Position numbers and translations under genes: made by a program. The notes beneath the pieces are model-generated. The model was not told the origin of the DNA. It ran no database searches and saw only the letters and a list, made by a program, of their open reading frames with translations. A stretch of DNA of 64,000 nucleotides from CBDBIG01 sp965205845 [NCBI: bacterium] (GTDB taxonomy: Bacteria; SAR324): positions 682,001-746,000 of the forward strand of contig CBDBIG010000005.1 in NCBI GenBank assembly GCA_965205845.1. Direction: 5' to 3'. Shown here in pieces: positions 1 to 64,000 of the stretch (positions are counted from its first letter, which is position 1; every line of letters starts with the position of its first letter).

Positions 1-1
1 A

Positions 2-388
2 AGCCATTCTAAAGGCAGAGGCAATGGAGCGTTGGGCGGCAGCCGCCGTCCGCACATTGCCGCGTACGGCCATCAGCATGCCCAAATAACCCGCTAAAAT
101 CGAGATAGAGGCCCCCACCACAAAAGAAAGGGCTGAGGGGGCGTCGACCAACACAACCAGCAGCACGCTAAAAACCAGCATAAAGCCAAAAATGTATCTG
201 GTTTCCCTCCACAAAAAAGCGTTGGCACCCTCTCGGATCGCACCCGAAATGTCGAGCATTTTCTCTGCAGTCTCTTTCGCCTCGACATTTTGTACAGGAG
301 ACCTTCTAATCACAAGCATCCAATAGATGATTGAACACAAGACGGATGCAATTCCAGCATTTAAAATAAACCATGTCACCCACGTCAT
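2..388 (-). CDS. hppA: Membrane-bound proton/sodium-translocating pyrophosphatase, N-terminal part (cut by window edge)
   Basis: The first 129 codons of an integral-membrane pyrophosphatase, which couples PPi hydrolysis to H+ or Na+ pumping across the inner membrane. The reading frame runs off the left edge, so the PPi-binding and catalytic loops are not visible. What is visible fits the family start: an N-terminal membrane helix, the segment GAIREGANAFLWRE (family signature GA.AFL.RE), a second hydrophobic hairpin, and the loop AGYLGMLMAVRGNVRTAAAA, which closely matches the conserved G(Y/F)xGMxxAxxANxRTA region. The start ATG at 388 has a GGAGA ribosome site about ten bases upstream. Full-length proteins are near 650-750 residues. 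Subtype (K+-dependent or not, H+ or Na+) cannot be judged from this fragment. Confidence 0.87.
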   Translation of the reverse strand, partial: MTWVTWFILNAGIASVLCSIIYWMLVIRRSPVQNVEAKETAEKMLDISGAIREGANAFLWRETRYIFGFMLVFSVLLVVLVDAPSALSFVVGASISILAGYLGMLMAVRGNVRTAAAAQRSIASAFRMA

Positions 389-1694
389 TTTCGTTCCCTA
401 CTCTCCTTCAAGAAAATAGATTTCTGATGTCAATTAAAATAATTCAACCACCCTTTTCGATTCGACAAATTTCTGCCAACCCTTACTCCGCCCACAATGA
501 AAGCAAGCCCACTCACCCCATACGCCAAGGCTTGCCTTGCAGTCCCATTTCGTGAGATTTTACCCCGCACCCATTCGCTATCCCAGCCTCTGCTTGCCCA
601 ATGCACCCCATTTCGCACTCAGCGTTGTCTGTGGTTCCACCTACCCTCACCCTTTATTACTTTAACAACCCGTCCCCACCAAGCCACGGGCAACAACCAT
701 CGCCCAATGGCACCCTCATCCATAAAGGTGGCGTTTTTTGATGCATTTCGCCATGCATAATAGGTGCATCAACTGCGTAGTTAGGCGCGTCACCTGCGTC
801 CACACGGGGGCGCATGTTTATTCACCACGAAGTTGATGGAGTGTTGGCGCCACCATACGCATCGCACACCCAAATAAACGGGGCATTTGAATCCACTTCA
901 CCGCACCAATCTGCCCTTCGTTTTAGTCATGAAAATCATCTTGATCCAAATGGCCATGCCGCTAAAGTACACACTACCCCGCGTGCAAGGCAAACGGGAT
1001 AATAAATAGGGCATCGCCTTAGCTCAAGGCGCCTTTGAGCCCTTAGCAGGGGTTGCCCGGATTTGCCACCTTAGTTAAACATCTTTAGCGTATCAAATGA
1101 TAAGCGACTTAAAACTTCTCAAAATGGGTAAAAATTGCTGTGCATTCGCTGTGATATTGCTTTACAACTGGCGGTTACAATCGGCCGATGACACTCAATT
1201 TCGCTTTACACACAATAATGCAGGGGATAATACACAAAACGTGTGCCAACGCGTGCTGTGGGGCCGTGGGCAAAACGGGCCGTGGGCAAAACTTCTGTTT
1301 TTAAAGCAGGTGCATAAGCACCTAAACAAAACCAGACTATAAAGAGCGCAAGCACCATCTCCTGCTCAGGGCAATTGGACACTCCAAGTGAACGGACGCC
1401 ACACCCTACAGGCTTTTTATGGTATATTTCAAGCACTATTTTTGCATAATGCCCGACGCGCTTACATTTTTGCGGGTCACACCTGGTTATAGGGTTGCAA
1501 ACCACGCCCTTTGATAACAGCGATTTTAAAAAAATGCCTGCCGCTTCCCAATACGCCAACACCTCCATCGCTAAAGCGTTTTACGTTACCCCGACCCAAA
1601 AAATTTTCAATAGCCCTGCATGAACTTTGTGCCTTCAATGCAAATTTTTTAGTGCCAGACTAACTATCGATAAAGAAAATGGAGGAGAAATCCC
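389..1694. other. 1.3 kb region without a recognisable gene
   Basis: No frame here gives a family I recognise on either strand. Open frames are short, lack good ribosome sites and overlap each other. A 16-bp tandem duplication (GGGCCGTGGGCAAAAC) lies at 1261-1292. The stretch 1485-1623 is open on the plus strand without a start codon and could be the tail of a decayed gene. The hppA promoter should lie in the first 200 bases. Confidence 0.5.
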
Positions 1695-3115: not shown

Positions 3116-4975
3116 ATGGCGCGAGATACCATGAGCAAAGGGCCAAACCTTATTCACCCCGAAAAGCCTAGTGCGGTGGGTTCCCGAAACAGTATGAATC
3201 GGGATAGTCGTAATGAGTATGAAGAGTCGAAACTGCTTATTGACGAAGAAGTGGATAAAATTTTGAATCACATCCACTCCAAGCTACCGCCCGAGGTGCT
3301 CGAAAAATTGGATGTGATGGGTGGGGTGAAGTCTAAACTGCATAACTACTTCAACCAAAATTTTCAAAACATGTACAACCGCTACCTCACCACAATGGAG
3401 GATGAGCTGGGTAAGAAGGTTCGCGACCTGGTGGACAAGGAGGAATACCGCTCGCTTAATCGCTATACTCCGCGGGAAATTGGCGAGATTTTAGACAAAA
3501 TTGGCGGGATCGACAAATTTAATACTGGCGAGGTGGAGAAGTCTATCGTCAATATTTACGGCCACCTTCAAGGCCACATTCAACGCGGTATGTTCGAGTT
3601 AGAGAATGAGACCAATGCATTGCTACGGCAGAAGTCTGATGTGGGGGGGTTTGTACGCGGTGAAAATGCCTATGCCATTGCCAAATGTTCTTTTAAAAAC
3701 AACTTTCACAAACCTAAAACGGTGATTGATGTGAAGTTGGCCATCAACATGCTCGATGCAGAACTCATCAGTCCCATTTACCATTATCAAGCACCGCTCT
3801 CCAATATTGTAAAAGATTTGGTGAGCAAGCATATGCACGACTTGATCGAGCAAGAACTGGTGGAACTCAACAATTCGTTGATTGACGAGGGGAAAGAAGA
3901 GTTGAGTGCGACCGAAACCATGTTTGAGAAAATTAAGGCCTTGGACAACTACGTAGACGACGAGATTGAAAATGAGCAGTCGCCACGCTACCAATTTGTG
4001 GCCAAGCGCTTTATGGATCGCATTGAGGGGCTTAAGGCAGAGATTCCGAGTGAGGATTATGATCCTCTGAATATTCGCGAAAACATTAAGTCGATTATTG
4101 ACAAAGAAAACATCCGAAACCGCGGCTTTAACACCGCGGTGAATAGTTTAACCTCTGTGTTGGATACCTCTAAGATGGGCTACCAGCACATTGAAAACTT
4201 TAAGAATGCTCGCATTGCCATTGTTCGTGAGTATGAGGATATTGATGTGCTCCAACTTCCCGATGAGCGTTATTCCATTCGCTTGAGCTATTATGACGAT
4301 GATCAGGTACGTTTGATGCGCAACAGTTACGATCAGCAGTTTGAAGAACTTAAAACGGAGATCGTGAAGGTGTTCGATGTGGTTCAAGTGCTGTTTGAGG
4401 ATTACAAAGCTGCAAGCGGCACCCAGGACTACGAGGATGTTGCCCGTCATTATCTCAAAGAAGACAAAGCGGGTAGTTGGTTCTCTCGCGGTTCACGCAC
4501 CGAAGACGAAGAGGAAACAGAGGCCGTCGAAGCAGCACCCAAGCTGTGGAATGAGATTACCTTTGTGCCACCTGGCGTGGTAGAGGGGCAAGCAACAAAA
4601 ACCAACTTGTACATGGCCGAAGAGTTACGAAAGCGCGTGAAAGCGAGCCGCGAGAAACTGGGACGCATCTATGGCAATCAACATCCGACCGATCGCAGTA
4701 TCGTGGATGCTCGCCTTGATTTTCTTGGCCAGAAATTTGAAGAGTTTGACGGCACAGTCAACCCCTATCATATTTTACCGGGCTTGGTACTAGAGGTTGA
4801 CATTACCTCAGTAAAGCGCAAGCGCACCACAATGATGTCGATGGCCAACGTGCTCAATGAGTTCCTCTTCTCCGTGTCCAAAGGTTTTCACGATTCCGCT
4901 TTTGCTGAATTCTCTCGCCGTCGTTCAACGGTGCGTGAAGACCTTGCACAAAGCTTTGAGCAAGCCAGCGACTAG
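3116..4975 (+). CDS. cfpA: CfpA-like cytoplasmic filament protein
   Basis: A 619-residue, highly charged, soluble, mostly helical protein without signal peptide or membrane segment. It resembles spirochaete cytoplasmic filament protein A, the subunit of the ribbon-like filaments that run under the inner membrane along the cell length. The resemblance, recalled rather than computed, is in the N-terminal third (NRYLTTMEDELGKKVRDLVD, RYTPREIGEILDKIGGIDKF, GHLQGHIQRGMFELENETN, LLRQKSDVGGFVRGENAYAI) and near the C terminus (ILPGLVLEVDITSVKRK, MANVLNEFLFSVSKGF, SRRRSTVREDLAQSF). Length is close to the family (about 680 in Treponema). An acidic, poorly conserved patch lies near residues 455-480. A start at Met6 is also possible. 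The stop codon sits inside the first unit of a 45-bp tandem array. If the assignment is right it is the strongest spirochaete marker here. Confidence 0.62.
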   Translation: MARDTMSKGPNLIHPEKPSAVGSRNSMNRDSRNEYEESKLLIDEEVDKILNHIHSKLPPEVLEKLDVMGGVKSKLHNYFNQNFQNMYNRYLTTMEDELGKKVRDLVDKEEYRSLNRYTPREIGEILDKIGGIDKFNTGEVEKSIVNIYGHLQGHIQRGMFELENETNALLRQKSDVGGFVRGENAYAIAKCSFKNNFHKPKTVIDVKLAINMLDAELISPIYHYQAPLSNIVKDLVSKHMHDLIEQELVELNNSLIDEGKEELSATETMFEKIKALDNYVDDEIENEQSPRYQFVAKRFMDRIEGLKAEIPSEDYDPLNIRENIKSIIDKENIRNRGFNTAVNSLTSVLDTSKMGYQHIENFKNARIAIVREYEDIDVLQLPDERYSIRLSYYDDDQVRLMRNSYDQQFEELKTEIVKVFDVVQVLFEDYKAASGTQDYEDVARHYLKEDKAGSWFSRGSRTEDEEETEAVEAAPKLWNEITFVPPGVVEGQATKTNLYMAEELRKRVKASREKLGRIYGNQHPTDRSIVDARLDFLGQKFEEFDGTVNPYHILPGLVLEVDITSVKRKRTTMMSMANVLNEFLFSVSKGFHDSAFAEFSRRRSTVREDLAQSFEQASD

Positions 4976-5173
4976 GACAACCCGCGCCGCGCGCAAAGCT
5001 TTGAGCAAGCCAGCGACTGGGGAAACCCGCGCCGCGCGCAAAGCTTTGAGCAAGCCAGCGACTAGGGAAACCCGCGCCGCGCACAAGGCTTTGAGCAAGC
5101 TAGCGACTAGGACAACCCGCGCCGCGCACAGGGCTTTGAGCAAGCTAGCGACCAGGACAACCCGCGCCGCCGG
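4949..5173 (+). repeat. 45-bp tandem array, five units, starting inside the filament gene
   Basis: Five direct units of 45 bp begin at 4949, 4994, 5039, 5084 and 5129. Unit 1 contains the last codons and the TAG stop of the CfpA-like gene. Because 45 is divisible by three, the units stay in the gene's frame and encode a 15-residue repeat around QSFEQASD and NPRRA. The codon at the stop position reads TAG, TGG, TAG, TAG and CAG in units 1 to 5. Open frames in the two other frames and on the minus strand are by-products of the period. Confidence 0.95.
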
Positions 5174-5175
5174 TG

Positions 5176-5200
5176 GTAATCCCCCCTTTTTGGGGATTAC
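5176..5200 (+). terminator. Hairpin after the 45-bp array
   Basis: Perfect 9-bp stem (GTAATCCCC with GGGGATTAC) around a 7-base loop, directly after the repeat array. It lacks a long U-run of its own and probably works with the stronger hairpin just downstream. Confidence 0.55.
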
Positions 5201-5210
5201 AAGGTAAATA

Positions 5211-9080: not shown

Positions 9081-10487
9081 ATGCCCATTTTTACCCATCA
9101 GCAAAAATTGCCCGTTTGCGCCAAAACAGCCTACGCATGGTGTACCCGCCAAGGGGCGTTGCATCGCTTAAATCCACCTTTTCTACCCACCAAAGTACTA
9201 AGCACAAGCCATGGGGTGCATGCAGGGGCAAGTGCCATGGTTCAGTTGCGCTTGGGACCTTTTAAAAAAATTTGGCATGCCTGCCACGAAACCCCAAACC
9301 CACCCCATACCTTTATTGATGCCCAAGTCAGCGGCCCATTTCGCCGTTGGCGCCATGAACACCACTTTATCGATCAAGCAGACGGTCGGTGCGTGATGGA
9401 AGATGTTGTAGACTGGGAGGCACCGCTGGGAGCATTGGGGCGTTTTTTTGGCCAAAATTTCATTATAAATGCGTTGAAGCGTGTATTTGCATGGCGCGGG
9501 GTGATGATGGCAAACGACCTGCAGCGTCACGAGGCATTTTCCAAAAAAGCGCGTCTGCGTGTCGCCATCTCTGGGTCAAGGGGCATGGTGGGTCGTGCCC
9601 TTTGCGCCATGCTCTCTGCGGGTGGGTATGGTGTTGTGCCTTTGGTGAGGCACAAACCTTCTCGAGGGGAGATGGGTTGGGATGCCGTCCAAGGCGTTTA
9701 CCCTGTTAGGGATCTGCAAAATATTGATGCCGTGATTCACTTGGCGGGAGAAAACATTGCGAAAGGCCGTTGGAACGCAGAGCGCAAGCGAGCCATTTAC
9801 GCGAGTCGCGTTCAAAGCACGCGAGCTATTGGTCAATCCTTGATACGAGCATGGGGGGGCAACACCCAACACAAACCGTTTTTGTGCGCTTCGGCAATTG
9901 GTTTTTATGGAGATCGGGGCGATGCTATACTGGATGAAAATACCATGGCAGGGGAGGGTTTTTTAAGCCAGGTGGTCCAAGACTGGGAAAATGCCTGCCA
10001 GCCTGTAGCAGATGCGGGCATTCGCGTGGTTAATTTGCGCTTGGGGGTGGTCCTCAGCGCGGCAGGCGGTGCGCTGCAAAAAATGCTTCTCCCTTTTCAA
10101 ATGGGGCTGGGCGGCCCTCTTGGGCATGGTAGGCAGTGGTTTAGTTGGGTTGGTTTAGAAGACGTACTTGGGGCCATTTTGTTTAGCTTACATACCCCAA
10201 GCATCCAAGGCCCCGTCAACGTAACCGCGCCAAACCCTTTAAGCATGCAAGCCTTTGCCAGCCACTTAGGCAAGGTGTTGCGCCGCCCTGCGAAACTGGC
10301 CGTACCCGCATGGGCCTTACGCTTGGCCATGGGTGAAATGGCGCAGCCGTTGCTTATGGCAAGCCAGCGCGTTCAACCACGACACCTGATCGAAAGTGGG
10401 TTTTCATTTTTGCAGCCCCATGTTCATCAAGCATTATGCTTTGCCCTGGGGCAATTATCTCGTTTGAACCGTGGGCATTGTGACTAA
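9081..10487 (+). CDS. SRPBCC (cyclase-like) domain fused to TIGR01777-type NAD-dependent epimerase
   Basis: A 468-residue two-part protein. Residues 1-150 form a ligand-binding SRPBCC domain, starting MPIFTHQQKLPV and including ALHRLNPPF and FIDAQVSGPFRRWRHEHHF. Residues about 158-450 are an extended SDR epimerase of the TIGR01777/YfcH family, with the nucleotide loop SGSRGMVG, HLAGENIAKGRW, ASAIGFYGDRGD (active-site Tyr region) and a C-terminal DUF1731-like segment (HLIESGFSF). The fusion is known in several phyla; a role in cell-envelope or lipid-linked chemistry has been suggested for relatives but is not established. The 9081 start is chosen because homologous fusions begin with this motif. 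Its 3' end is duplicated immediately downstream. Confidence 0.85.
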   Translation: MPIFTHQQKLPVCAKTAYAWCTRQGALHRLNPPFLPTKVLSTSHGVHAGASAMVQLRLGPFKKIWHACHETPNPPHTFIDAQVSGPFRRWRHEHHFIDQADGRCVMEDVVDWEAPLGALGRFFGQNFIINALKRVFAWRGVMMANDLQRHEAFSKKARLRVAISGSRGMVGRALCAMLSAGGYGVVPLVRHKPSRGEMGWDAVQGVYPVRDLQNIDAVIHLAGENIAKGRWNAERKRAIYASRVQSTRAIGQSLIRAWGGNTQHKPFLCASAIGFYGDRGDAILDENTMAGEGFLSQVVQDWENACQPVADAGIRVVNLRLGVVLSAAGGALQKMLLPFQMGLGGPLGHGRQWFSWVGLEDVLGAILFSLHTPSIQGPVNVTAPNPLSMQAFASHLGKVLRRPAKLAVPAWALRLAMGEMAQPLLMASQRVQPRHLIESGFSFLQPHVHQALCFALGQLSRLNRGHCD

Positions 10488-10941
10488 AAATGTTGCCCTA
10501 GGCACAGGTCGTTCATGCGCTACTTGTGGGTTGACAATATGTGTGCTGCTAGGGGAGACCTAATCACACCGCCCAGCCTGGCAGTCGTGCTAGCCGAGCA
10601 CGTGTGGGTAGTGCCCTGCGAAACTGGCCGTACCCGCATGGGCCTTACGCTTGGCCATGGGTGAAATGGCGCAGCCGTTGCTTATATGGCGGCAAGCCAG
10701 CGCGTTCAACCACGACACCTGATCGAAAGTGGGTTTTCATTTTTGCAGCCCCATGTTCATCAAGCATTATGCTTTGCCCTGGGGCAATTATCTCGTTTGA
10801 ACCGTGGGCATTGTGACTAAAAATGTTGCCCTAGGCACAGGTCGTTCATGCGCTACTTGTGGGTTGACAATATGTGTGCTGCTAGGGGAGACCTAATCAC
10901 ACCGCCCAGCCTGGCAGTCGTGCTAGCTGAGCACGTGTGGG
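10285..10941 (+). repeat. Tandem duplication of the epimerase 3' end (two copies of about 325 bp)
   Basis: Copy 1 (10285-10608) covers the last 68 codons of the epimerase, its stop and about 120 bases downstream. Copy 2 (10613-10941) repeats this almost perfectly: one 5-base insertion near 10687 and one C-to-T change near 10927 are visible. The copies are separated by four bases. Copy 2 has no start and, after the 5-base insertion, is out of frame; it is a remnant, not a gene. The near identity implies a recent event. Confidence 0.95.
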
Positions 10942-22492: not shown

Positions 22493-23115
22493 TTTTTTTG
22501 TCCACCCGCAATGCATCTAATTCTCCCACGAGCAAAGGCAGCCATGTTGCCAAACACCCCTGCTTTACATTGTGCCACGGTGCGATTATGGCGGTTTGCA
22601 CACCCTCTCCTCCATCACCAGCAAAGGCAAGCCATGTTGCCAAACACCCCTGGCTCTACATTGCGCCACAGTAAAATACAAAGGCTGGAACACCCTCTCT
22701 CCCATCACCAGCAAAGGCAAGCCATGTTGCCAAACACCCCTGGCTCTACATTGCGCCACGGTAAAATACAAAGGCTGGAACACCCTCTCCTCCATCACCA
22801 GCAAAGGCAAGCCATGTTGCCAAACACCCCTGGCTCTACATTGCGCCACAGTAAAATACAAAGGCTGGAACACCCTCTCTCCCATCACCAGCAAAGGCAA
22901 GCCATGTTGCCAAACACCCCTGGCTTTACATTGTGCCACGGTGCGATTATAGCGGTTTGCGCATCCTCTTCTTTCCCCTTTTTTGAAATTGAGTAAAGCG
23001 TTAAAACCATCCTCATTTCGCGGTAAACTTTTGTTTAAAAAAGCCCTTTTTGCTCGATGATAAGAGCAAATTCCCCGATTTTTAAAGCAGCGTGGAAAAA
23101 AGAGGGTCTGCGGGT
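22493..23115. other. Intergenic region between mutS2 and dut, largely a 90-bp repeat array
   Basis: Filled mainly by the tandem array described separately (22532-22974). After it comes an AT-rich stretch (22975-23060) with no gene. The downstream hairpin or U-rich sequence directly after the mutS2 stop (TGATTTTTTTG) may help end transcription. Confidence 0.5.
22532..22974 (+). repeat. 90-bp tandem array, five units, with higher-order order A-B-C-B-A'
   Basis: Units are anchored by GCCATGTTGCCAAACACCCC at 22542, 22632, 22722, 22812 and 22902, exactly 90 bp apart. Units 1 and 5 share one variant of the distal half (TTGTGCCACGGTGCGATTAT), while units 2-4 share another. Units 2 and 4 are identical to each other and differ from unit 3 at a few bases (CACAGT/CACGGT and CTCTCCC/CTCCTCC). 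Each interior unit contains a small inverted repeat GGCAA-GCCATG-TTGCC. The period is divisible by three, so long open frames on both strands are artefacts. Confidence 0.95.
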
Positions 23116-27787: not shown

Positions 27788-28070
27788 AAGGGCCGGTGGG
27801 GGTGCAAGAACAAAGCTTGACCATCCTTAGAAATTTCAGAAAACCGCCACGGTGCCATGCGTGGCCTGCTTGAACGCGCCGATGATATTTTTTTAGTAAA
27901 CACAAAGCGCAAAAACCGCAGCCTGCACGCCAGCGTATGCGCAGATGGCAAAGACATGGCAAAGACGCGCCAAATGGCTTAGCCAGCAAGGGTTGGGCGT
28001 GTTACACCCCCAGCGCAAAGCCCCCCAATGCGGGGCACAAGCCTTGGTTTGTATGCCTTTGTGGCGCATT
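27788..28070. other. Region between purA and the 10-bp array
   Basis: No supported gene. A start-to-stop frame near 27856-27981 (about 42 residues, with LLERADDIFLVNTKRKN) reads like a scrap of a protein but matches nothing I recognise. Codon 27981 is a TAG. Confidence 0.35.
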
Positions 28071-28456
28071 TAATGCAAGTTAATGCAAGTTAATGCAAGT
28101 TAATGCAAGTTAATGCAAGTTAATGCAAGTTAATGCAAGTTAATGCAAGTTAATGCAAGTTAATGCAAGTTAATGCAAGTTAATGCAAGTTAATGCAAGT
28201 TAATGCAAGTTAATGCAAGTTAATGCAAGTTAATGCAAGTTAATGCAAGTTAATGCAAGTTAATGCAAGTTAATGCAAGTTAATGCAAGTTAATGCAAGT
28301 TAATGCAAGTTAATGCAAGTTAATGCAAGTTAATGCAAGTTAATGCAAGTTAATGCAAGTTAATGCAAGTTAATGCAAGTTAATGCAAGTTAATGCAAGT
28401 TAATGCAAGTTAATGCAAGTTAATGCAAGTTAATGCAAGTTAATGCAAGTTAATGC
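28071..28456 (+). repeat. Perfect 10-bp tandem array, 38 full units
   Basis: The unit TAATGCAAGT is repeated 38 times without any visible mismatch (28071-28450), with a six-base partial unit at the end. It has stop codons in every frame on both strands, so it is non-coding. It lies in the long spacer between purA and the convergent glk gene. Confidence 0.98.
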
Positions 28457-29101
28457 TATCGTTGCCCCAGTTGCGCCAAGGGTTTTTATGGGCAATAAGG
28501 GTGGCAACCTGGGCATTTTGTTGTGGCGTGGCGCGGAAACCTTGCGGGTTATAATGCTGGCGCACAGCGCAAGCACAACGGCACGGGGCATCGCGGCAGG
28601 CTGGCGAAGCATAAGCGCAAACTTTACCCAAACCGCCTTAAAACAAGCCGGGGCAGAGCGAGAGCGTGGGTCGCGAAGGGCTGTGTTTTACATCCCCCCC
28701 TAACCGCCCTGCAGGGTTATCTGCTGCCAGAGCGCTGCGCCTCTAATGGATTTATCGCAAACCTAAAGAAAAGGCACCCTTGCCATTTGGTGGTAAGCCT
28801 TTTTGCGAATTGCGAAGCGGCATTGTAAATCCCTTTCGAACATTTTCCAACCCTTTAGAATTTCCTCTACAGGGCCCTCGAAAAAGTCTTACGCCATGTG
28901 AACGAAAAACGCGCAAACCCGCATGCCACCGTTTTTTGGGCCGTTCAATTTACACCACCTTTTTAGCGTAAACACACTGCCCGTAAACCGTTGAAAAACC
29001 ACAAAAAACCATTAAATTTTGACCCGTGGCAAAGCATGGGGACGGGCACATACGCTATCTACGTGAAAACCTGCTTTGCTAAGCAAACCCTAAGCATTGA
29101 A
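28457..29101. other. Spacer holding copy A of a dispersed repeat
   Basis: Bases 28457-28584 are unique; on the minus strand they are open and read ...QGFRATPQQNAQVATLIAHK..., possibly the end of a decayed gene cut by the array. From about 28585 to 29062 lies a copy of the repeat found again at 38760-39205. No intact gene is present. Confidence 0.5.
28585..29062 (+). repeat. Dispersed repeat, copy A
   Basis: Shares long near-identical blocks with 38760-39205: around CCAAACCGCCTTAAAACAAG (28628), CTCTAATGGATTTATCGCAA (28740), GGCATTGTAAATCCCTTTCG (28821), GTGAACGAAAAACGCG (28898) and GCAAACCACAAAAAACC-like DNA near 29000. Small indels separate the blocks, and none of the frames is conserved between copies, so it behaves as non-coding or long-decayed DNA. 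Confidence 0.85.
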
Positions 29102-38759: not shown

Positions 38760-39205
38760 AGGGGGCCCCGCGAAAGGCTGGCCAGACAGGTCCTAGTTTT
38801 TACCCAAACCGCCTTAAAACAAGCCGGGGCAGAGCGAGAGCGCGGGTCGAAGGGCTGCGTTTTGCACCCCCCTAACCGCTTTAGTGGGTATCTACAGTCA
38901 AGGTCTTGCGCCTCTAATGGATTTATCGCAAACCTAAAGAAAGGCACCCTTGCTATTTGGTGGTAAGCATTTTGCCAAGCGGCATTGTAAATCCCTTTCG
39001 AACGCGGTTTGCCTCTTCGAAACCCTTCGAATTAAGTGCCGGCCGAGTGGCGTTCCATGTGAACGAAAAACGCGTAAACTCGCATTCCACCGTTTTTTAG
39101 GCCGGTCAATTTACACCACCCTTTTAGCGCAAACACACTGCCCGTAAACTGTTAAAAAACCACAAAAAACCATAATTTTTTGAGCCGTGTAAAAGCAAGT
39201 GTCTC
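38760..39205 (+). repeat. Dispersed repeat, copy B
   Basis: Second full copy of the repeat at 28585-29062. Near-identical blocks include CCAAACCGCCTTAAAACAAG at 38804, CTCTAATGGATTTATCGCAA at 38911 and GGCATTGTAAATCCCTTTCG at 38980. Copy B has lost or gained small segments relative to copy A and carries an extra block (GCCGGCCGAGTGGCGTTCC at 39038) that starts the 174-bp tandem copy C. Confidence 0.87.
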
Positions 39206-39211
39206 GGCACA

Positions 39212-39374
39212 GCCGGCCGAGTGGCGTTCCATGTGAACGAAAAACGCGTAAACCCGCATTCCACCGTTTTTTAGGCCGGTCAATTTACACCACCCTTTTA
39301 GCGCAAACACACTGCCCGTAAACCGTTGAAAAACCACAAAAAACCATAATTTTTTGACCCGTGTAAAAGCAAGT
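39212..39374 (+). repeat. Dispersed repeat, partial tandem copy C
   Basis: Repeats 39038-39201 at a distance of 174 bp, nearly identical (GCCGGCCGAGTGGCGTTCC through AAAAGCAAGTG). A further 28-base tail resembling copy A's end (TGGCAAAGCATG...ACGGGCAC) lies near 39421-39450. Confidence 0.9.
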
Positions 39375-39594
39375 GAACGAGAACACCGCTTAATCCCGCT
39401 TAATCCCGCTATTTTCTAGTGGTGGCAAAGCATGTGAACGGGCACAGTGGCAGGTGGTGTCCCCCAGCACGGGCCTTTTTGATGCCTTTTCTCCTCTGCC
39501 AAGGTGTGCCCTAACGCGGGCCTTTTTTTGTGCTTTGTGGGCCCCTGGGAAGAGAGGCATGAAACAAAACACCACCCAAAAGCCAAAACCGTTT

Positions 39595-44164: not shown

Positions 44165-44381
44165 ATCAAAGACGGTCCCCGTTGGTTTAAATGCCGTTGT
44201 TGTGCTAAACACACTGGCCAGTTTGATGGAAGAGGCCCGCGGGAAATTGGCACAAAACGAAGCGGCCCTCGACCGTGTGGTCATGCTAAAAGCACTGGCC
44301 GAACACCTGGGAGTTAAGCAGCGTGTGCTTTTGCAACGCGGCTTCGAACGGGCGTATCGCCAATTGGTAGAAGGTGTTTAA
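44157..44381 (+). CDS. Small protein overlapping the end of aroA
   Basis: A 74-residue, basic, helical protein starting MAKSKTVPVGLNAVVV with ATG overlapping the aroA stop by 8 bases (translational coupling arrangement). It has LNTLASLMEEARGKLAQNEAALDRVVMLKALAEHLGVKQR, a predicted amphipathic helix. No domain recognised. Support comes from the tight overlap, the absence of a competing frame and its plausible composition. Its last codons lie inside a 77-bp duplication. Confidence 0.5.
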   Translation: MAKSKTVPVGLNAVVVLNTLASLMEEARGKLAQNEAALDRVVMLKALAEHLGVKQRVLLQRGFERAYRQLVEGV

Positions 44382-44524
44382 CTGAGAAGTTCTTTGTTGG
44401 CTTTGCTTGCAAAAAATGTGATAGGGGCTGGTGCCCAGTAACCGTGGAAGGTGTTTAACTGAGAAGTTCTTTGTTGGCTTTGCTTGCAAAAAATGTGATA
44501 GGGGCTGGTGCCCAGTAACCGTGG
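44371..44524 (+). repeat. 77-bp tandem duplication over a stop codon
   Basis: Two copies (44371-44447 and 44448-44524) of the end of the small gene, its TAA and the following spacer. Apart from the flanking base before each copy they look identical. Together with the aroA overlap it leaves a second, unused stop and no separate terminator. The FlhG gene ends at 44536 on the other strand. Confidence 0.93.
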
Positions 44525-44535
44525 AAGGGGTTGTA

Positions 44536-49846: not shown

Positions 49847-50944
49847 TCAGTTTACGGATGGCTGGTTTGCTGGTGGATTGCCCGCGTTACCTTGCTTAAG
49901 GCGGTACACATAAGCCAAAATTTCTGCCACAGCTTGAAAAAACCTTTCTGGAATGGGGTCGCCAATCTCGACTTCGTTAAACAGCGAGCGCGCGACAGTG
50001 GGGTTCTCCACAATGGGAATGCTGTTCTCTTCTGCTGCTTTACGAATGCGCAAAGCCACCCAATCGGCACCTTTTGCCGTTAATTCTGGGGCATGCATAA
50101 CCTCGCTATCGTAGCGTAAAGCCACCGCAAAGTGGGTCGGGTTGGTTACGACCAAGTCTGATCTTGGCACCTCTTGCATCATGCGACTTCTTGAGGCATC
50201 GCGCTGAATTTGGCGCACCCGCGCACGCAGTTGTGGGTCACCTTCGGATTGGCGATGCTCCTCTTTGGTCTCTTGTTTGGTCATCATCAAGCGTTGCTCA
50301 TGGCGAAACCGCTGATAGAGATAGTCGACTACAGCCAGTAAAATCATGGCCAATGCAGAATAGATCAGCAGTTTAAGCACCAAGTGGTAGGTATAGCGCA
50401 TCAAGCCAACCATGGGCAGCTGGCTTAAGCCCAACAGCTTTTGTGCATCATTCGACAGCACCCCATAGACGATAACCCCAATAATACCCATTTTGAAAAT
50501 GGACTTAAATAACTCAACCAAACCATCGATGGAGAAAATGCGCTTAAAGCCTTCAAGGGGATTGAGGCGTTCGGGTTTTAGTTTGAGTGGATTAATATGC
50601 CAGCCCACTTGTAACACCACCACAAAAGAGGCAAGCAAAGCGGCCAACATAAGCAACAAACCAAATACGGGCAGTAAGCTTGTTAATCCCGCATTAAAGC
50701 CTGCACTTAATTGGCCAATGCTCATATCGGGTGCCGTGATTGCCACCGGGATCCACTGTCGCCATAAATTTGACAAAATGGTGGTCAACCAGTCACCGCC
50801 AATAAGCAGCGCAAGGGAAAAAAATGCCAGCAATGTCGCAGGGGCTGCTTCGCGGCTGAGGACTACCTGCCCTTCGCGGCGTGCTTCTTCGCGGCGTCGA
50901 GGAGAAGCGGGTTCGGTTTTTTCTTGTCCGTCTTGCTCGGCCAT
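49847..50944 (-). CDS. flhB: Flagellar export switch protein FlhB
   Basis: A 365-residue FlhB. Four membrane helices lie in residues 35-210. The cytosolic tail carries the self-cleavage site NPTH (residues 268-271, cleavage between N and P), which switches export from rod/hook to filament substrates; GADWVALRIRKAAEENSIPIVENPTVARSLF follows as in the family. The N terminus is long and Glu/Arg-rich (MAEQDGQEKTEPASPRRREE), the part that is copied upstream in a 104-bp array. The fliR gene lies upstream and its end is included in the array. Confidence 0.95.
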   Translation of the reverse strand: MAEQDGQEKTEPASPRRREEARREGQVVLSREAAPATLLAFFSLALLIGGDWLTTILSNLWRQWIPVAITAPDMSIGQLSAGFNAGLTSLLPVFGLLLMLAALLASFVVVLQVGWHINPLKLKPERLNPLEGFKRIFSIDGLVELFKSIFKMGIIGVIVYGVLSNDAQKLLGLSQLPMVGLMRYTYHLVLKLLIYSALAMILLAVVDYLYQRFRHEQRLMMTKQETKEEHRQSEGDPQLRARVRQIQRDASRSRMMQEVPRSDLVVTNPTHFAVALRYDSEVMHAPELTAKGADWVALRIRKAAEENSIPIVENPTVARSLFNEVEIGDPIPERFFQAVAEILAYVYRLKQGNAGNPPANQPSVN

Positions 50945-51197
50945 GCGGAGTTCTTTACGCTTTCATGCGCTAAGGTGAAGTGGGCAATCGCTTAAGGGGT
51001 GAGAGGAGAAGCGGGTTCGGTTTTTTCTTGTCCATCTTGCTCGGCCATGCGGGGTTCTTTACGCTTTCATGCGCTAAGGTGAAGTGGGCAATCGCTTAAG
51101 AGGTGAGAGGAGAAGCGGATTCGGTTTTTTCTTGTCCGTCTTGCTCGGCCATGCGGGGTTCTTTACGCTTTCATGCGTTAAGGTGAAGTGGGCAATC
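50899..51197 (-). repeat. 104-bp tandem array, three copies, over the fliR-flhB junction
   Basis: Copies at 50899-51002, 51003-51106 and 51107-about 51197. Each contains, on the minus strand, a fliR-like end (TCACCTTAA-type spacer), then an ATG and the first codons of flhB. The copy next to flhB supplies the true start (ATG 50944). The two upstream copies encode decoy frames of 18 residues that begin MAEQDGQEKTE and stop after PLTS or PLTP (ATG 51152 to TAA 51096, and ATG 51048 to TAA 50992). Copies differ by a handful of bases. Confidence 0.95.
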
Positions 51198-51966: not shown

Positions 51967-52052
51967 TGGCAACGCCTTCCTTGGCGTGTTGGATGCAGCT
52001 TTTCGATTGGCCGCCAAAGCGAATTGCAGGTTCGAGATCGGTGGTTTTTTGT

Positions 52053-54764: not shown

Positions 54765-55050
54765 TATGTTCAAATCAATCAAGCATGGGTGTTCGAATAA
54801 CTTCTTATCTCAATAAAAACGACTGTTAAGCTTTTATGGGTAGGCAGGCATCATTGGATGCAGATGAATGCACTCCCCGTTTGCCCCAACAGACAAGGTA
54901 CAATACTGGCACATAAACCATGGGTTTGCCAGACAGCATTGTTGCTAAATCACCCGCTGAAAAATGGCAACGTTGCCCGTCGATTAGGGGACGAGGTTTT
55001 GCAATAAAGCAGTTGCCATGTTTCATCTTTGCATGCCATAAGAATGGTGC

Positions 55051-55238
55051 AAGGCAAGTGCAGGGAAAAATAAAATCACCCCCTTGGTTTAAGGATCCCT
55101 GTGTGGCTACGTTGCCACGTTGTTATTTTTCAGAAATATATATCAAGGCAAGTGCAGGGAAAAATAAAATCACCCCCTTGGTTTAAGGATCCCTGTGTGG
55201 CTACGTTGCCACGTTGTTATTTTTTAGAAATATATATC
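55051..55238 (+). repeat. 94-bp tandem duplication upstream of ilvC
   Basis: Two near-identical copies (55051-55144 and 55145-55238), starting AAGGCAAGTGCAGGGAAAAA and ending in GAAATATATATC. Only one base (C/T) differs visibly inside. Each copy ends in an AT-rich stretch with a possible -35 and -10 (see the promoter entry), so the duplication probably yields two promoter copies. Confidence 0.94.
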
Positions 55239-55255
55239 CCAGTCACATATTGTGA
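55206..55255 (+). promoter_or_regulatory. Candidate ilvC promoter and operator
   Basis: TTGCCA at 55206-55211 and an AT-rich -10-like AATATA/TATATA at 55229-55236 are spaced 17-19 bases apart; the same pair occurs in the first copy near 55112-55135. Just downstream, TCACATATTGTGA (55243-55255) is an inverted repeat (TCACA, 3-base spacer, TGTGA) near the expected transcription start. Half-sites resemble CRP/FNR-type operators but are too close together for a standard one. Function is inferred. Confidence 0.4.
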
Positions 55256-55286
55256 TGGCACACCCTAACTGTGAGTTGCTGTAACC

Positions 55287-56330: not shown

Positions 56331-56343
56331 GCGGTGCTCTAGT

Positions 56344-59300
56344 TTACGCTTTTGCCTCTGGTTTTTCTGCCTTTTCTGGGCTGGGGGGTGAGATCCCTTC
56401 TTCTATGGGTGTGGTTTCTCCGGTAAGTGTCGTCGAATTACGCCCCTCTTGTGCTGTCGTTTTTCCCGCATCATCTGGCATGGCAAACGGTTCCCCCCCC
56501 CCACCTAGTGCTTGGGTACCAGCAGCCTGTGCCATTTGTGGAGTGGGGGTTTTTCCCGCTGCTGCGGGGCTTGCGCCTGGTTGTGTGTCCACGGAAAAAT
56601 CTGGCAACTTGCTCTCTGCCCATGCCATGTCATCTCTTATTTCATCGCGAGCCACCTTTGGAGCACTCTTGGGCGTTGTTCGGGGATCACCCGCAGCAGG
56701 GGCGTCGCCATTTACAGAGTATGCCTGGTTATTTTCCATCCAGTTTGCATCTTTCTCGAGTGCTGCGACATAACCATCGCCTTTCGCGTTATCTGCGTCA
56801 CCCTTTTCGATCAAACTCGCTTGAGGCGCAAACACCTCATCGTGCACGATGGGTTCTGAGGCCTGATCTTCTTGAGACGCTCCTTTTGCATCTTTTTGTG
56901 CAAAGGAATCGACATGCATTTTTTGCGCGAACGAATCTTTTATCTTTTGCCCTTCTGCCTCCTTACTCAGGGCCTGGCTCGTAATCACATCCTCGTTCAA
57001 GATTACCAAATCCTCCATATCCCCATGAGACAAGAAGCCCGCCAGGTGACGCACCAAAATATTGAGCAAGTTTGCTTGGCGAAGCAAGTCATCAGCGATG
57101 GTGACACTTTCTTGTGAAAGGGTCGAATTTGCTTGTGTGGACTGCCTTAGACCCTCAATCGCATCTTGAAAGGAGCGGGCCGTTTTCGCCAAGTTACCAT
57201 TGGTTCGACCTAAATTTTGCAAGATTTTATAGATTTGTGAGACAAATTCGTGAATGCGTTCCATAGCCTTGGCGGCTTCATCTGCCGCCTCGGTACCCAC
57301 CTCTGCTTCTTTTTGAGATAAATCAAGCAGTTTGTAGGTTTGTTCCGCTGCACCCGCACTCCGTCCAGCCAGGTTGCTCACCTCATCGGCCACCACAGAA
57401 AAGCCCTTACCATAGGTGCCCGCCCGTGCAGCCTCAACCGCAGCATTTAATGCAAGCAAGTTGGTTTGAAATGCAATCTCATCGATCGAACGCACGACTT
57501 CAACCGTTTGTTCCGAAGCTTGATGAATCCCTTTCATGGCATGGCTAAGCCGTACGCTTGCCTCCTCGCTCACCCTTGTATAGAGGTTTGCCTGGCGAGC
57601 ACGGCGTTCACTATCTAAAGTACCTTGGGTACTCGTTTTTAAGAGGTTGTGCATTTTGTGCATGTAGTTGTTCAAAACTTCAGAGATACGATTTTGGGAG
57701 TCAACCTCCGTCACCAAAGCATGCCCCGATTTTTGTACCTGTAGGGCTGATTTTTGTAACCGTGTTGCCACCCGCTCCATCTCAGCAATCACATCATCAA
57801 TAGGGGCAGCAAGGTAGCGTATAGCACGAGAAACAACCCACCACATTAAGGCTAAAACGCCTATGATGATGATAAGCAAGAGCAGAAAACTGAAAGCGAC
57901 GACGGCAAAATCCTGCTCAATATCTTTTTGCAAACGCACGTAGACCTGGGCCATGGTATCGCCAAAAGTATCATGAAGACCAACAAGAACCTGCGTGCCT
58001 TGACCAACCCATCCTTTGACATTTATTTCAGTGCCAAAGTTTTGAAAACTTGCTTTTTCAGCAGAGGCCAGCAAATCTTTTTGCCCTTGGTCTAATACGT
58101 TCCCGTCTTCAATCAATACGGGTCCATTTACCAATGTTTCAAACACAATATCCAAAAATTGAAAATATTCAGAAATATCATGTTGAACACCTTCATCGCG
58201 ACCATGCACATCTTGACCAGATATTGGGATTGTATCGTTTGAATCGGCAAATGATCTGCGAATGGAATAAGCCGTTCGATTCCCTAAGTTCAACAAGGAA
58301 CGTACCCCCGTACTAGGGACCTTGCCTACAGCCCATTCGGTAGACAGAGCAAGCCATTGTGTAAAAAATAGTTCTTGATTACGCAGCGTACGATTTAAGG
58401 AATAGAAAAAGGTCAATGCATCGTGGGAACCATGACCTATGCTACCGCCCCCTAATATCTCACCCAGCCATTGGCCCAATCGGGGAATATCATAGCTGTG
58501 CAACAAAGCATCTTGCCCAATCTGCCCGGCATCGACTTGTTTTCGTACAGTCGTAACATTTCGTGTGTTGAGATCATCTGAAAAACCAACCAAAAAGCCG
58601 CCTATACTGGGTGATGCGTAATATTCTGCAATCAATTCCGCTTCCGTTTGCTCACGTGGTAGCAAGGGTTTCATCAAAGTCACAAGGAATGTCGTATCCT
58701 CGCCAGTCACGGGATCCTCTGCAACGACAATGGGTGTGTCGACGATCCCCTTTGCCTGCGTATTTGCAGTGGGATCGACCGCAGTGGGGGCTTTGGCGCT
58801 CGCATCGGCATCTACAAGGGTTTCTTGTGCACTGGCGTCAGTGTCTGAATCTGGAGATGCTGCCTGTGTGTCTATCACTTCTTCATCCGATTCTTCGTTC
58901 CCCAACTCGACCGCAAAGTTGATATCAGAAAAGCCTTCTGAATCTACGCCCGTTTTATCTGTATCCGTCTCCAACTCGATGGCAAAGTCGCCACCAGAAA
59001 AGTCTGTTGAATCTACGCCCGTTTCACCCTCCGTTTCACCCTCCGTTTCACCCTGTGCTTCCTCTTCCGTAAAACTGGGCATACTAAAAGATATTTCGGT
59101 ATCGAAGTCACCCTCTCCTTTAGCATCGGCTTCATTATTTTCTGCTGTGGGATCACCGGGTTCGGGTTGAACCGCTGGGCTTGATGCTGTGGGATCACCG
59201 GGTTCGGGTTGAACCGCTGGGCTTGATGCTGTGGGATCACCGGGTTCGGGTTGAACCGCTGGGCTTGATGCTGTGGGATCACCGGGTTCGGGTTGAACCG

Positions 59301-59781
59301 CTGGGCTTGATGCTGTGGGATCACCGGGTTCGGGTTGAACCGCTGGGCTTGATGCTGTGGGATCACCGGGTTCGGGTTGAACCGTGTTGTCTGGCAGTCC
59401 CTCCGTAGCGGGAAGAGGGGAAACGAACCCCTCGATCACCCCCCCCCCCTGCGCTGTTTGCACAACGCGGTCGACATCCGCTTTTAACTGCTGAAAATCT
59501 GTAATGGCAGCATCGGTTTGCATCCGTGCTTTAAGCAACTGCGGTCGATAGGCTCCATCGACGAGCAATAAGGCAGAAAGACCGCGCTCAATTTGCATGC
59601 TGTGCAGCACACGAGATGCAGATTGCAAAATGCTTATTCTGGCAGCGGATTGTTTGGTATGGTCAATTTCCTCCAACCTACCAATGAGTCGCCCGTAGGC
59701 AAAATAGAGCATTACAGCTAAGGGAAGCAAGGTGAGGATGATCATCCTAAGGCGTAGTCCACCTAAACCTTTATTTTTCAA
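56344..59781 (-). CDS. Methyl-accepting chemotaxis protein with interrupted NIT-type sensor domain
   Basis: A 1145-residue chemoreceptor. Translation appears to start at TTG 59781, with AAGGA eight bases upstream; the first ATG is at codon 13, inside the first membrane helix. TM1 is residues 12-29 and TM2 about 626-650. The periplasmic region starts with the first half of a nitrate/nitrite-sensing (NIT) type domain (about 45-105: [25 protein letters not shown]), is interrupted by an acidic Pro/Glu/Ser-rich stretch (about 115-365), and resumes with [20 protein letters not shown] and the helical half to about 610. The cytosolic signalling hairpin tip reads [21 protein letters not shown] (768-788). 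A long acidic, disordered tail (about 920-1145) follows. Ligand unknown. Confidence 0.88.
59143..59382 (-). repeat. 42-bp coding repeat, six units, in the chemoreceptor gene
   Basis: Encodes a 14-residue repeat [14 protein letters not shown] at residues 134-213, with the last unit incomplete. Units look nearly identical at DNA level, in frame, so copy number can change without disrupting the protein. Confidence 0.95.
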
Positions 59782-60287
59782 AACAAAATCCTTATGAGCT
59801 AAGGGGCTATTATCGACGGGGAATTAATTTGTACTTGGCCGGCAGATGGTATGGGTCGTCTATATTGATAGGGCCATGCCATATTGTATAGGGCCATGCC
59901 ATTTTGCCAATCGGGTTTTTACGGTAATACTCTCTTCACATTTTGTGTGATTAAGTACTGTGCTTGGCAACGATACTACCCCTTTTTGAGGGATTATCAT
60001 ACTGCATCCCTCAATTTTATGGCAGAGCGTGTTTTTTTTTAAAAAAATGCTTTCGACAACAGCCAAGCATGTTCTTAGATTTTTCCGGAGCACTTTGGCA
60101 ACACAGCGTTATTTTTTAAAACGGGTGCTTGCATGGTATGGTGAGATCCAAAAACATAATTCAGTGGCTTGTTACCAAAGTTGTTTGTGATGCTTGTACT
60201 TGCATAAAGCATGCACTGCTTTTTATTTTTGATTAAAAAATACGCGAAAACATCCAATTTTGATCAGCGAGTTGTTTTTAAAAAGTT
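59782..60287. other. Divergent region between the chemoreceptor and peptidase genes
   Basis: About 500 bases, AT-rich, with an 18-base direct duplication (TAGGGCCATGCCATATTG-like) near 59869-59905 and a hairpin-prone run near 59985-60020. No supported gene. Confidence 0.45.
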
Positions 60288-62176: not shown

Positions 62177-63295
62177 ATGCAGCGTGTGTCTTTTAAAGCT
62201 TGTAGGTCTCCATTGTTTTTCCTTGGCACTTTTCTCCGTTTTTTAAAAACGTTTTGCCCCAAACGTTGTCTTGTGGGGTTGTTTTGCGCCATTGCGCTAT
62301 CTGGCGGGTGGGCGCATAATGCCCTTGCTCAGCAGGCATTTTCTGGCGATAAAACCCCCAGTGCCGGTACCAGTGCCAGTGCCACTGTGTGCTTGAGCCC
62401 CGCCGAATGTTTACAGCAATTGCGCTTTGCAGAAAGTGCTCTGTTGCGTCAACAGGCGGCCCAAGTCTTGGGAGAACGCGGTTCGACCACGGCCAATTCA
62501 GCCTTAATTATGGCGCTCCAAAACGATCCCAGTGAGTTTGTAAAAATTAAAGCCGTGCAAGCCTTGGGGCGTTTGCGGATGCCACGGAGCTTTGAACCTC
62601 TGGTAAACACCCTAAACCAGGCCAAAAGCGGTCGGTTACGCGTCGCAGCAGCCCTTGCGTTGGGGGAAGCACAGATGGTCAAAGCCACGCTCCCCCTTCA
62701 AAACACCTTAAAAAAAGATGCCCATTGGCGCGTGCGTCGTGCTGCAGCATTCGCCTTAGGGCGCTTTAACCAAAGCCAGCATGTATCCACCCTGCTCACG
62801 GCACTCCAAAGCGAACCCCATCCGTTGGTACGTTTTCGGATTGCCACCGTCTTGCAAAAAATACCTTTCAGCCCGCAGCAAACCTTGGCTGCGGCACCCG
62901 TGCTAATTAAAGGGTTTGAAGCGGAAAAAAATATCCAGGTACGCTTGGCAATGATTGCTTTGCAAGGAACTATAGGGGGCGATCAAATTCAGCAAGCACT
63001 GTTGGTTTTGTTAAGCGACAAACACGTGGAAGTGCGTGAAGCTGCTGTACGTGCATTGGGCGATATCCCAAACAACCGTACAACCCAACGGCTTATACAA
63101 ACCTTGCGTGATGATACCGACTTACGCATCCGCCAAGCCGCCTTGCGCGCACTTAGCAAGCACAAAACGGCCTTTGCTCAAGAGGCCATTGCTTACTATG
63201 CCAAACATACGAGGTTGAAAGACCTCCAAAATTTGGCAAAAGATCTTTTACAAAAAAGCACGCAAACAACCCCTTTGCCTGCAAAACGGCCCTAA
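62177..63295 (+). CDS. Secreted HEAT-repeat protein
   Basis: A 372-residue protein starting MQRVSFKACRSPLFF (ATG; an in-frame TTG precedes it). A basic N terminus and a hydrophobic segment (CLVGLFCAIALSGGWAHNALA) form a long signal sequence, cleavage likely after NALA, near residue 52. From about residue 75 the sequence repeats the HEAT/PBS-lyase pattern of about 31 residues with A-x-x-ALG or A-LG-R turns: AAQVLGERGS, AVQALGRLRM, AALALGEAQM, AAAFALGRFN, AVRALGDIPN, ALRALSKHKT. Such secreted HEAT repeats serve in protein-protein contacts; partner unknown. It lies directly after the peptidase and may share its transcript. Confidence 0.83.
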   Translation: MQRVSFKACRSPLFFLGTFLRFLKTFCPKRCLVGLFCAIALSGGWAHNALAQQAFSGDKTPSAGTSASATVCLSPAECLQQLRFAESALLRQQAAQVLGERGSTTANSALIMALQNDPSEFVKIKAVQALGRLRMPRSFEPLVNTLNQAKSGRLRVAAALALGEAQMVKATLPLQNTLKKDAHWRVRRAAAFALGRFNQSQHVSTLLTALQSEPHPLVRFRIATVLQKIPFSPQQTLAAAPVLIKGFEAEKNIQVRLAMIALQGTIGGDQIQQALLVLLSDKHVEVREAAVRALGDIPNNRTTQRLIQTLRDDTDLRIRQAALRALSKHKTAFAQEAIAYYAKHTRLKDLQNLAKDLLQKSTQTTPLPAKRP

Positions 63296-63448
63296 AAGCC
63301 ATTCCTATGAAGCCATGTGAAGCCTGTTTTTGCGATGCGTCGGGTTTTTTCACGCCATTGTTCAGTTTCAAATTGAGACGCCTGTAACCCTTTTCACAAC
63401 CCCTTTTCACAACAATAACATACCACTGTAACCTCGAGCCCTTGAATT

Positions 63449-64000
63449 ATGACTCAACAACATTTCACCGAAACCTTGTGGAAAAGCAATCAGCCAGAAC
63501 CCCGTACCATCACCCTGGTACGGCATGGTGAAACTTTTCAAAACCGCGAAGGTGTTGTGCAAGGGCAAGACCCGACCTGGGGGCGCCTAACTCCAGAAGG
63601 CATCCAACAAGCACAGTTGTTGGGTCAGCGCAGCCATACCGTTCCTTTTGATGCGGTATATTGTAGCCCGTTGGAGCGTGCCGTACTCACCATGGCTTTC
63701 ATGCTGGCACCACGCCAAGGCAATCGTACCTTGCCTATTGTATTTGCCGATGCGCTAAAAGAGATTAACATGGGTGCGTTGCAGGGCCGTTCCCAAAAAG
63801 AGTGGAAGCAAGAGGCCAAAGGGCAAGATCCCATGGTATTTAAGGCCAAAAATGGCGGGGAAAATTGGCTGGATGTCCAAAAACGGAGCAGCGGTTATTT
63901 TTGCAACACCATCTTAGCCTCTTCGTATCAGCGTATTTTGGTGGTAGCACATGGGGGGGTTAATCGCGGCATTTTATCTTCACTGTTAGGCATGAGCATG
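63449..64000 (+). CDS. Histidine phosphatase superfamily protein, 3' end cut by window edge
   Basis: The first 184 residues of a phosphoglycerate mutase-like phosphatase. The catalytic motif LVRHGETFQNREG (His nucleophile in RHG) is near residue 25; the second conserved His lies in VVAHGGVNRGIL near the end, and YCSPLERAVLTM holds the usual Arg. ENWLDVQKR fits the family. The substrate could be a phosphoglycerate, a cofactor phosphate (as in cobalamin synthesis) or another sugar phosphate. The frame is open to the right edge. Confidence 0.86.
   Translation, partial: MTQQHFTETLWKSNQPEPRTITLVRHGETFQNREGVVQGQDPTWGRLTPEGIQQAQLLGQRSHTVPFDAVYCSPLERAVLTMAFMLAPRQGNRTLPIVFADALKEINMGALQGRSQKEWKQEAKGQDPMVFKAKNGGENWLDVQKRSSGYFCNTILASSYQRILVVAHGGVNRGILSSLLGMSM

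What the first reader, a model, noticed from the sequence alone, without database searches (positions are those of the whole stretch)
1..64000. Recurrent tandem duplications at gene boundaries across the window
At least nine separate local tandem repeats occur in 64 kb, with periods of 10, 16, 42, 45, 77, 90, 94, 104, 174 and about 330 bp. Most overlap a stop codon, a start codon or a promoter, and each has a different sequence derived from the local DNA. This points to a general mechanism (slippage or short-homology recombination) in this lineage rather than to a spreading element. The effect may be adjustable gene ends and expression levels. Such density at gene borders is unusual for a bacterial chromosome.
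Basis: partly seen in the sequence, partly recalled or inferred. Interest (0 to 1): 0.65.

Follow-up and report, generated by a model that had tools for sequence, protein, structure and literature searches.

The report
Many local tandem duplications between genes
This stretch of bacterial DNA carries unusually many short, independently formed tandem duplications, but they sit in the DNA between genes in general (where they do little harm) and show no preference for gene ends; the kind is ordinary, the density is not.

Summary
The repeats are real. All ten listed periods are found. Nine arrays score 100 or more and cover 4.6% of the window; none of 20 random sequences had one. The density is unusual: 69 stretches (1.38 Mb) of other bacteria hold 13 such arrays, so 0.6 would be expected in 64 kb.

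The claim about gene borders fails. Eight of nine arrays lie mostly in noncoding DNA (1.8 expected), but only three (four under other gene models) touch a start or stop codon, against three expected from random placement.

Arrays inside genes have periods divisible by three (5 of 5 rows of score 44 or more; 6 of 17 rows elsewhere). Adjacent copies differ by 0 to 6.7%, so ages differ. The simplest account is repeated local duplication, by slippage or illegitimate recombination, filtered by selection. The rate per noncoding kb, about 20 times the comparators', is unexplained. The nearest published parallel seen is the repeats of archaeal Borgs (PMC9879509, passages). Effects on expression were not tested. 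The organism was not identified and no close relative was found, so copy-number variation could not be checked.

The parts
1261..1292 (.). 16-bp unit x2, exact, in the long gap left of 1695
   Evidence: score 64, below the cut of 100
4946..5170 (.). 45-bp unit x5; first copy holds the last codons and the TAG stop of gene 3116-4975, the rest lies in its 3' flank; adjacent copies differ by 6.7%
10285..10941 (.). about 330-bp unit x2: the 3' end of the epimerase/DUF1731 gene (stop 10487) plus 3' flank, copied once, 4-bp spacer between the copies
22527..22943 (.). 90-bp unit x4.6, inner copies alternating A-B-A-B (180-bp dimers) as read by eye, 35 bp after the mutS2 stop
28070..28456 (.). 10-bp unit TTAATGCAAG x38.7, no mismatch, in a 1.3-kb gap
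39038..39375 (.). 174-bp unit x1.9 in a 1.5-kb gap; most of the first copy is the end of a dispersed repeat shared with 28623-29036
44370..44532 (.). 77-bp unit x2.1 between aroA and the stop of the minD-like gene (4 bp away); overlaps the stop of a weak 74-aa ORF
50899..51197 (.). 104-bp unit x2.9 spanning the fliR stop and the flhB start; leaves two 18-codon remnants of the flhB start upstream of the gene
55050..55238 (.). 94-bp unit x2 in the divergent acnA/ilvC spacer, 1 mismatch
59143..59384 (-). 42-bp unit x5.8, exact, inside the MCP-like gene; encodes a 14-aa proline-rich repeat, in frame
59019..59054 (-). 12-bp unit x3, exact, inside the same gene
28623..29036 (.). dispersed repeat copy A (80% identical to 38799-39197)
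38799..39197 (.). dispersed repeat copy B, overlapped by the 174-bp tandem array

Best explanation
A local stretch of DNA is duplicated head to tail by replication slippage or illegitimate recombination, and some duplications then grow by slippage or unequal recombination. This happens again and again at unrelated places. Selection removes duplications that break genes, so survivors lie in noncoding DNA, at junctions where the neighbouring genes keep their own intact end or start, or inside a gene in multiples of three. No aiming at gene ends is needed. Shown: the arrays, their unrelated units, their different ages, their avoidance of coding DNA, the lack of border enrichment, and the frame rule for the stronger in-gene arrays. 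Inferred: the molecular route and the selection step. Not explained: why noncoding DNA here holds about 20 times more such arrays per kb than in the comparators.
For: No match between different arrays at E up to 1e-4. Adjacent-copy mismatch from 0/377 to 12/180 over 12 arrays measured, so ages differ. A-B-A-B order in the 90-bp array, read by eye, fits a later doubling of a dimer. 8 of 9 mostly noncoding against 1.8 expected, reached by none of 10,000 random placements; binomial P 1.5e-5 with a noncoding fraction of 0.194, my hand estimate after collapsing the arrays. Termini 3 of 9 against 2.98 expected. In-gene TRF rows of score 44 or more: 5 of 5 with period divisible by 3; outside or overlapping 6 of 17 rows (four of the 17 rows describe the 90-bp array, so by my count 4 of 14 separate arrays). 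No clearly unusual fold in the 8 units tried, z -1.8 to +0.6. In the fliR-flhB array both genes stay whole while the copies between them are remnants.
Against: Tolerance alone would not give 0.66 arrays per noncoding kb here against 0.033 in 69 other stretches. No constant microhomology at the array edges: residuals of 0, 1, 5, 7, 9 or 11 bp or larger partial copies, and spacers of 4 and 10 bp in the two long pairs. No relatives or reads to show single-copy ancestors. At lower TRF scores the frame rule weakens: 10 of 14 in-gene rows at score 38 or more, 14 of 25 at 30 or more. Six of nine arrays lie within 50 bp of a terminus against 3.5 to 3.7 expected (P 0.09 to 0.11), so a mild preference for gene neighbourhood is not excluded.
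Confidence: 0.66

Rival explanations
1. Contingency loci: the arrays are kept because copy number tunes gene ends, translation starts or promoters of neighbours.
For: Promoter tandem repeats of M. tuberculosis vary in copy number in isogenic populations (PMC12817950, abstract and passages). Here the 104-bp array repeats the flhB start region and the 94-bp array lies 49 bp from the ilvC start.
Against: No enrichment at termini; the named neighbours are housekeeping and flagellar genes without a common theme; two of nine arrays lie more than 200 bp from any called gene (28070, 39038).
Confidence: 0.12
2. Assembly artefact: copies created or multiplied by the assembler.
For: No genome is held for the window and no reads can be seen; two of the nine large arrays are exact.
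Against: Seven of nine large arrays have differences between copies (in the 77-bp array only in the partial third copy), and the stronger in-gene periods keep frame. That assemblies tend rather to collapse repeats is said in PMC9879509 and PMC12817950 (passages).
Confidence: 0.07
3. The arrays are traces of a spreading repeat element.
For: One dispersed repeat of about 415 bp exists and the 174-bp array overlaps it; the 90-bp units have a weak 24-bp likeness to two other places.
Against: Apart from the 174-bp array no array matches elsewhere in the window at E up to 1e-4. The dispersed repeat had no match in plasmids, the gap holding its copy A none in phages, and an exact pattern from its core none in viral contigs.
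Confidence: 0.05
4. Genome decay: the window comes from a lineage with weak selection, so ordinary duplications simply last longer.
For: Coding cover 78% by the codon model; 83% by the simple ORF method against 91% in the comparators; gaps up to 1.5 kb.
Against: Among the 69 comparators, array density at score 60 or more does not follow noncoding fraction (Spearman 0.06, P 0.61). No pseudogene was proved: Pfam gave nothing on the one suspected remnant tried.
Confidence: 0.1

Closest known systems
Tandem repeats of Borg elements of Methanoperedens archaea (PMC9879509, abstract and passages seen)
   Same: Unique units derived from local sequence, arising independently, in genes and between genes; in-gene units divisible by three, intergenic ones mostly not; [quoted passage not shown]
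   Different: Borg repeats were defined as three or more units; here five of the nine large arrays have fewer. Borg units are perfect and A-rich; here seven of nine arrays have differences between copies and the pooled units match the window in base composition. Borgs are archaeal extrachromosomal elements with 43 to 65% of repeats in ORFs; here 8 of 9 are noncoding.
Bacterial minisatellites / VNTRs, including M. tuberculosis promoter tandem repeats (PMC12817950, abstract and passages seen)
   Same: Units of tens of bp, few copies, outside genes and over promoters there; strand slippage and recombination named as causes.
   Different: Here copy-number variation is unknown; density is higher than in the bacterial stretches sampled (no Mycobacterium was knowingly among them).
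TAACTGA direct repeats of Beggiatoaceae (PMC4679880, abstract and outline only)
   Same: Abundant intergenic tandem repeats in a bacterium.
   Different: There one heptamer recurs across the genome, mostly just upstream of start codons; here the units differ and there is no enrichment at gene termini.
MIRU elements of mycobacteria (recalled, no call)
   Same: Units of similar length overlapping stop and start codons.
   Different: MIRUs are one dispersed family; here the units are unrelated.

Membership tests
Bacterial minisatellite / VNTR-type tandem repeat | Head-to-tail copies of a unit of about 10 bp or more | tested here: met
Bacterial minisatellite / VNTR-type tandem repeat | Copy number varies between strains | not testable with these tools
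   no close relative found; nearest aconitase 60% identical in its best segment; GatB at most 53% in the listed matches of 249, 61, 40 and 39 genomes
Borg-type pervasive tandem repeats | Units unique to each locus | tested here: met
   no match between arrays at E up to 1e-4; the 174-bp array overlaps a dispersed repeat
Borg-type pervasive tandem repeats | In-gene periods divisible by three, others not constrained | tested here: met
   5 of 5 rows in genes, 6 of 17 rows elsewhere at score 44 or more; only 14 of 25 in genes at score 30 or more
Borg-type pervasive tandem repeats | Three or more units per array | tested here: not met
   4 of 9 large arrays have three or more; 333, 174, 77, 94 and 104 bp have 1.9 to 2.9
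Borg-type pervasive tandem repeats | Perfect copies without substitutions | tested here: not met
   7 of 9 large arrays have differences between copies; 28070 and 59143 are exact
Borg-type pervasive tandem repeats | A-rich units | tested here: not met
   A 0.247 in the eight pooled noncoding or border units, 0.254 in the window
Dispersed repeat family (MIRU/REP/MITE-like) | Same unit at many loci | tested here: not met
   within the window only; exception: one two-copy dispersed repeat overlapped by the 174-bp array
Gene-border-targeted repeats | More overlap with gene termini than random placement gives | tested here: not met
   3 to 4 of 9, 2.8 to 3.0 expected

The most novel reading that the evidence does not exclude
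The bacterium belongs to a deep, poorly sampled lineage whose chromosome duplicates short local stretches at a rate far above that of other bacteria, genome-wide, through a peculiarity of its replication or repair: a bacterial counterpart of the Borg repeat process, with selection leaving the products between genes.
Probability: 0.2. Interest if true: 0.55.

Novelty: new member of a known kind. Interest (0 to 1): 0.3.

Why it matters
If the density holds over the whole genome, this lineage would be a natural model for how tandem repeats are born in bacteria: arrays of different ages, unrelated units and different boundary geometries side by side. It also shows that tandem arrays across gene borders need no targeting: placement in mostly noncoding DNA gives at least as many border overlaps as seen here (3.85 expected, 3 seen).

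Tried and rejected
Border enrichment was tested with three gene models (codon model without a weak 74-aa ORF; with it, and with the longest starts plus it) and rejected in each. Fold-driven duplication: 8 pieces folded as DNA, z from -1.8 to +0.6; the lowest is four copies of the 10-bp unit, which 9 of 200 shuffles match; the 174-bp and 333-bp units were not folded. Known RNA families: only a tRNA at the gathering threshold. Repeats as hidden genes: the four open frames tried over the 45-bp and 90-bp arrays score below all real genes scored in codon use. Element origin: no match (the viral-contig scans are for exact patterns; one search is window 44000-60000 against plasmids, near mode).

Identifying the organism failed. 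Aconitase gave nine relatives of at most 60% in the best segment. FlhA gave at most 51% over full length, 54% over a part, in 150 genomes of the order of G006. GatB gave at most 53% in the listed matches of 249 + 61 + 40 + 39 genomes around G005, G001, G002 and G008 (the list was cut). I guessed Vampirovibrionia from memory and had no test for it. Paper searches: none found; none found.

Counting choices: TRF rows with period under 10 were dropped and overlapping rows merged to the best (not, which counts rows). Of loci L001-L112 I gave TRF 69 (L001-L009, L053-L112) and left out 43 short ones (L010-L052). L006 and L007 appear to be near-duplicates and both were counted. The 60 stretches of 20 kb were chosen by me from genomes with long contigs, mostly near a gatB or flhA match, so they are not a random sample; their phyla are known only through the record titles of L001-L009. 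Two partial genes at the window ends (1-270, 63480-64000) were added by eye. The comparators' genes were called by a simple ORF rule, the window's mainly by a codon model; one search repeats the window with the simple rule.

Full report
Observation. After dropping periods under 10 and merging overlapping rows, nine arrays score 100 or more and cover 2,917 bases, 4.6% of the window; 15 score 50 or more. Twenty order-2 Markov simulations gave no array at 80 or more and a mean of 0.35 at 50 or more. So the repeats are real sequence features.

Density. As a yardstick I used 69 stretches of other bacterial genomes (1.379 Mb): nine aconitase neighbourhoods and 60 twenty-kilobase stretches. They hold 13 arrays of score 100 or more, so 0.60 are expected in 64 kb; nine is far above this (Poisson P 1.7e-8; the sample is not random, so the figure is only a guide). 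One stretch of 69, L058, exceeds the window's density at this cut; at looser cuts two (score 60) and six (score 50) of 69 reach it. The genome of L058, G164, sampled in 20 further stretches (400 kb), has 12 such arrays, 1.9 per 64 kb, 9 of them in coding DNA; G342, sampled the same way, has one in 400 kb. With one and the same simple ORF method, the window has 7 of 9 arrays in noncoding DNA and 0.66 per noncoding kb; the comparators have 4 of 13, three of these in L058, and 0.033 per noncoding kb. Under that method the 90-bp array counts as coding because a frame happens to stay open over it; codon use does not support that frame.

Place. Genes were called with a codon-use model trained on long ORFs, most of them family-matched, with two partial genes at the ends added by eye. 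Eight of nine arrays are mostly noncoding; random placement of arrays of the same lengths gives 1.8, and none of 10,000 placements reached eight. But overlap with a start or stop codon is three of nine against 2.98 expected, and against 3.85 when the eight noncoding arrays are placed only in mostly noncoding sites. Adding the weak 74-aa ORF at 44157-44381, or using the longest start codons, gives four against 2.8 to 3.0 (P 0.30 to 0.34). Within 50 bp of a terminus: six against 3.5 to 3.7 (P 0.09 to 0.11), and against 4.8 when placement is limited to noncoding sites (P 0.31); a hint at most. The border claim is therefore not supported; the pattern is avoidance of coding DNA.

What the arrays look like. 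No two arrays match at E up to 1e-4. The age spread is wide: the 10-bp (38.7 copies) and 42-bp (5.8 copies) arrays are exact, the 94-bp and 77-bp arrays have one mismatch each, the 104-bp array 3.1% and the 45-bp array 6.7% adjacent mismatch; the inner part of the 90-bp array has 4.3%, its first copy being more diverged. The 90-bp array, read by eye, alternates two variants A-B-A-B, which fits a doubling of a 180-bp dimer. The about-330-bp pair copies the 3' end of an epimerase gene plus its flank; the gene itself remains open. The 104-bp array spans the fliR stop and the flhB start: both genes stay whole, and two extra copies of the flhB start run into stops after 18 codons. The 45-bp array starts in the last codons of gene 3116-4975, whose TAG stop lies in the first unit; by eye an inverted repeat with a T-rich loop lies just after the array. 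The 42-bp array encodes a 14-residue proline-rich repeat within the MCP-like protein. In-gene rows of score 44 or more all have periods divisible by three (5 of 5), others 6 of 17 rows; with the cut lowered to 38 the in-gene figure is 10 of 14, and at 30 it is 14 of 25.

Mechanism. These facts fit local duplication by slippage or illegitimate recombination, later growth by slippage or unequal recombination, and removal by selection of what breaks genes. A duplication across a gene junction can leave both genes intact, which explains the flhB and epimerase cases without any aiming. The units tried have no clearly unusual fold and no base bias, and edges show no constant microhomology, so no trigger is visible. 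Tolerance alone does not explain the 20-fold excess per noncoding kb, and among comparators density (score 60 or more) does not track noncoding fraction. Either duplication is faster in this lineage, or selection against it weaker, or this window is a local cluster; the tools could not decide, because no genome is held and no close relative was found.

A dispersed repeat. Two copies of about 415 bp, 80% identical, lie 10.2 kb apart in two of the three longest gaps. The 174-bp tandem duplication (2.4% divergence) overlaps copy B and by divergence looks younger than the split of the copies. With a weak 24-bp likeness of the 90-bp units to the mutS2 end and to 38963-38986, this is the exception to 'purely local'.

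Known parallels. The Borg repeats (PMC9879509; abstract and passages) behave alike in local origin, unique units and the frame rule, but are defined by three or more units, perfect, A-rich and about half in ORFs. Promoter tandem repeats of M. tuberculosis (PMC12817950; abstract and passages) vary in copy number and may alter promoter strength; nothing of the kind was tested here. TAACTGA repeats (PMC4679880; abstract and outline) are a different case, one recurring heptamer. I saw no paper describing this window's arrays in the listings; without the organism's name these searches could easily miss one.

Verdict. Real and unusually dense, correctly read as local in origin, wrongly read as concentrated at gene borders. 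A known kind of feature at a high density in an unidentified bacterium.

Noticed in passing
28623-29036 and 38799-39197: Two-copy dispersed repeat of about 415 bp, 80% identical, in two of the longest gaps; no match in plasmids, exact core absent from viral contigs.
   Followed up: partly
58899-58955 and 58968-59024: A further diverged pair (82%, spacing 69 bp, a multiple of three) inside the MCP-like gene, below TRF's cut.
   Followed up: no
55287-56330: IlvC's best match among solved structures is a chain named mitochondrial ketol-acid reductoisomerase (7toc, 416 bits), far above the next (216 bits).
   Followed up: no
33086-34585: Proline--tRNA ligase matches family I (TIGR00408, 552 bits) far better than family II (86 bits).
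   Followed up: no
4946-5170: In-frame TAG stops stand in copies 1, 3 and 4 of the 45-bp array, while copies 2 and 5 read TGG and CAG there; a second frame (4857-5207) is open throughout but has poor codon use.
   Followed up: partly
38500-38676: Reading frame that by eye resembles a piece of a DNA adenine methylase; Pfam gave no match, so a pseudogene is only a guess.
   Followed up: partly
whole window: GatB, FlhA and aconitase are at most 53%, 51% and 60% identical to the relatives listed, so the organism seems far from the groups sampled.
   Followed up: partly
L058 (G164:C1:810000-829999): A stretch of another genome with three noncoding arrays within about 2 kb (periods 118, 66, 344).
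   Followed up: partly
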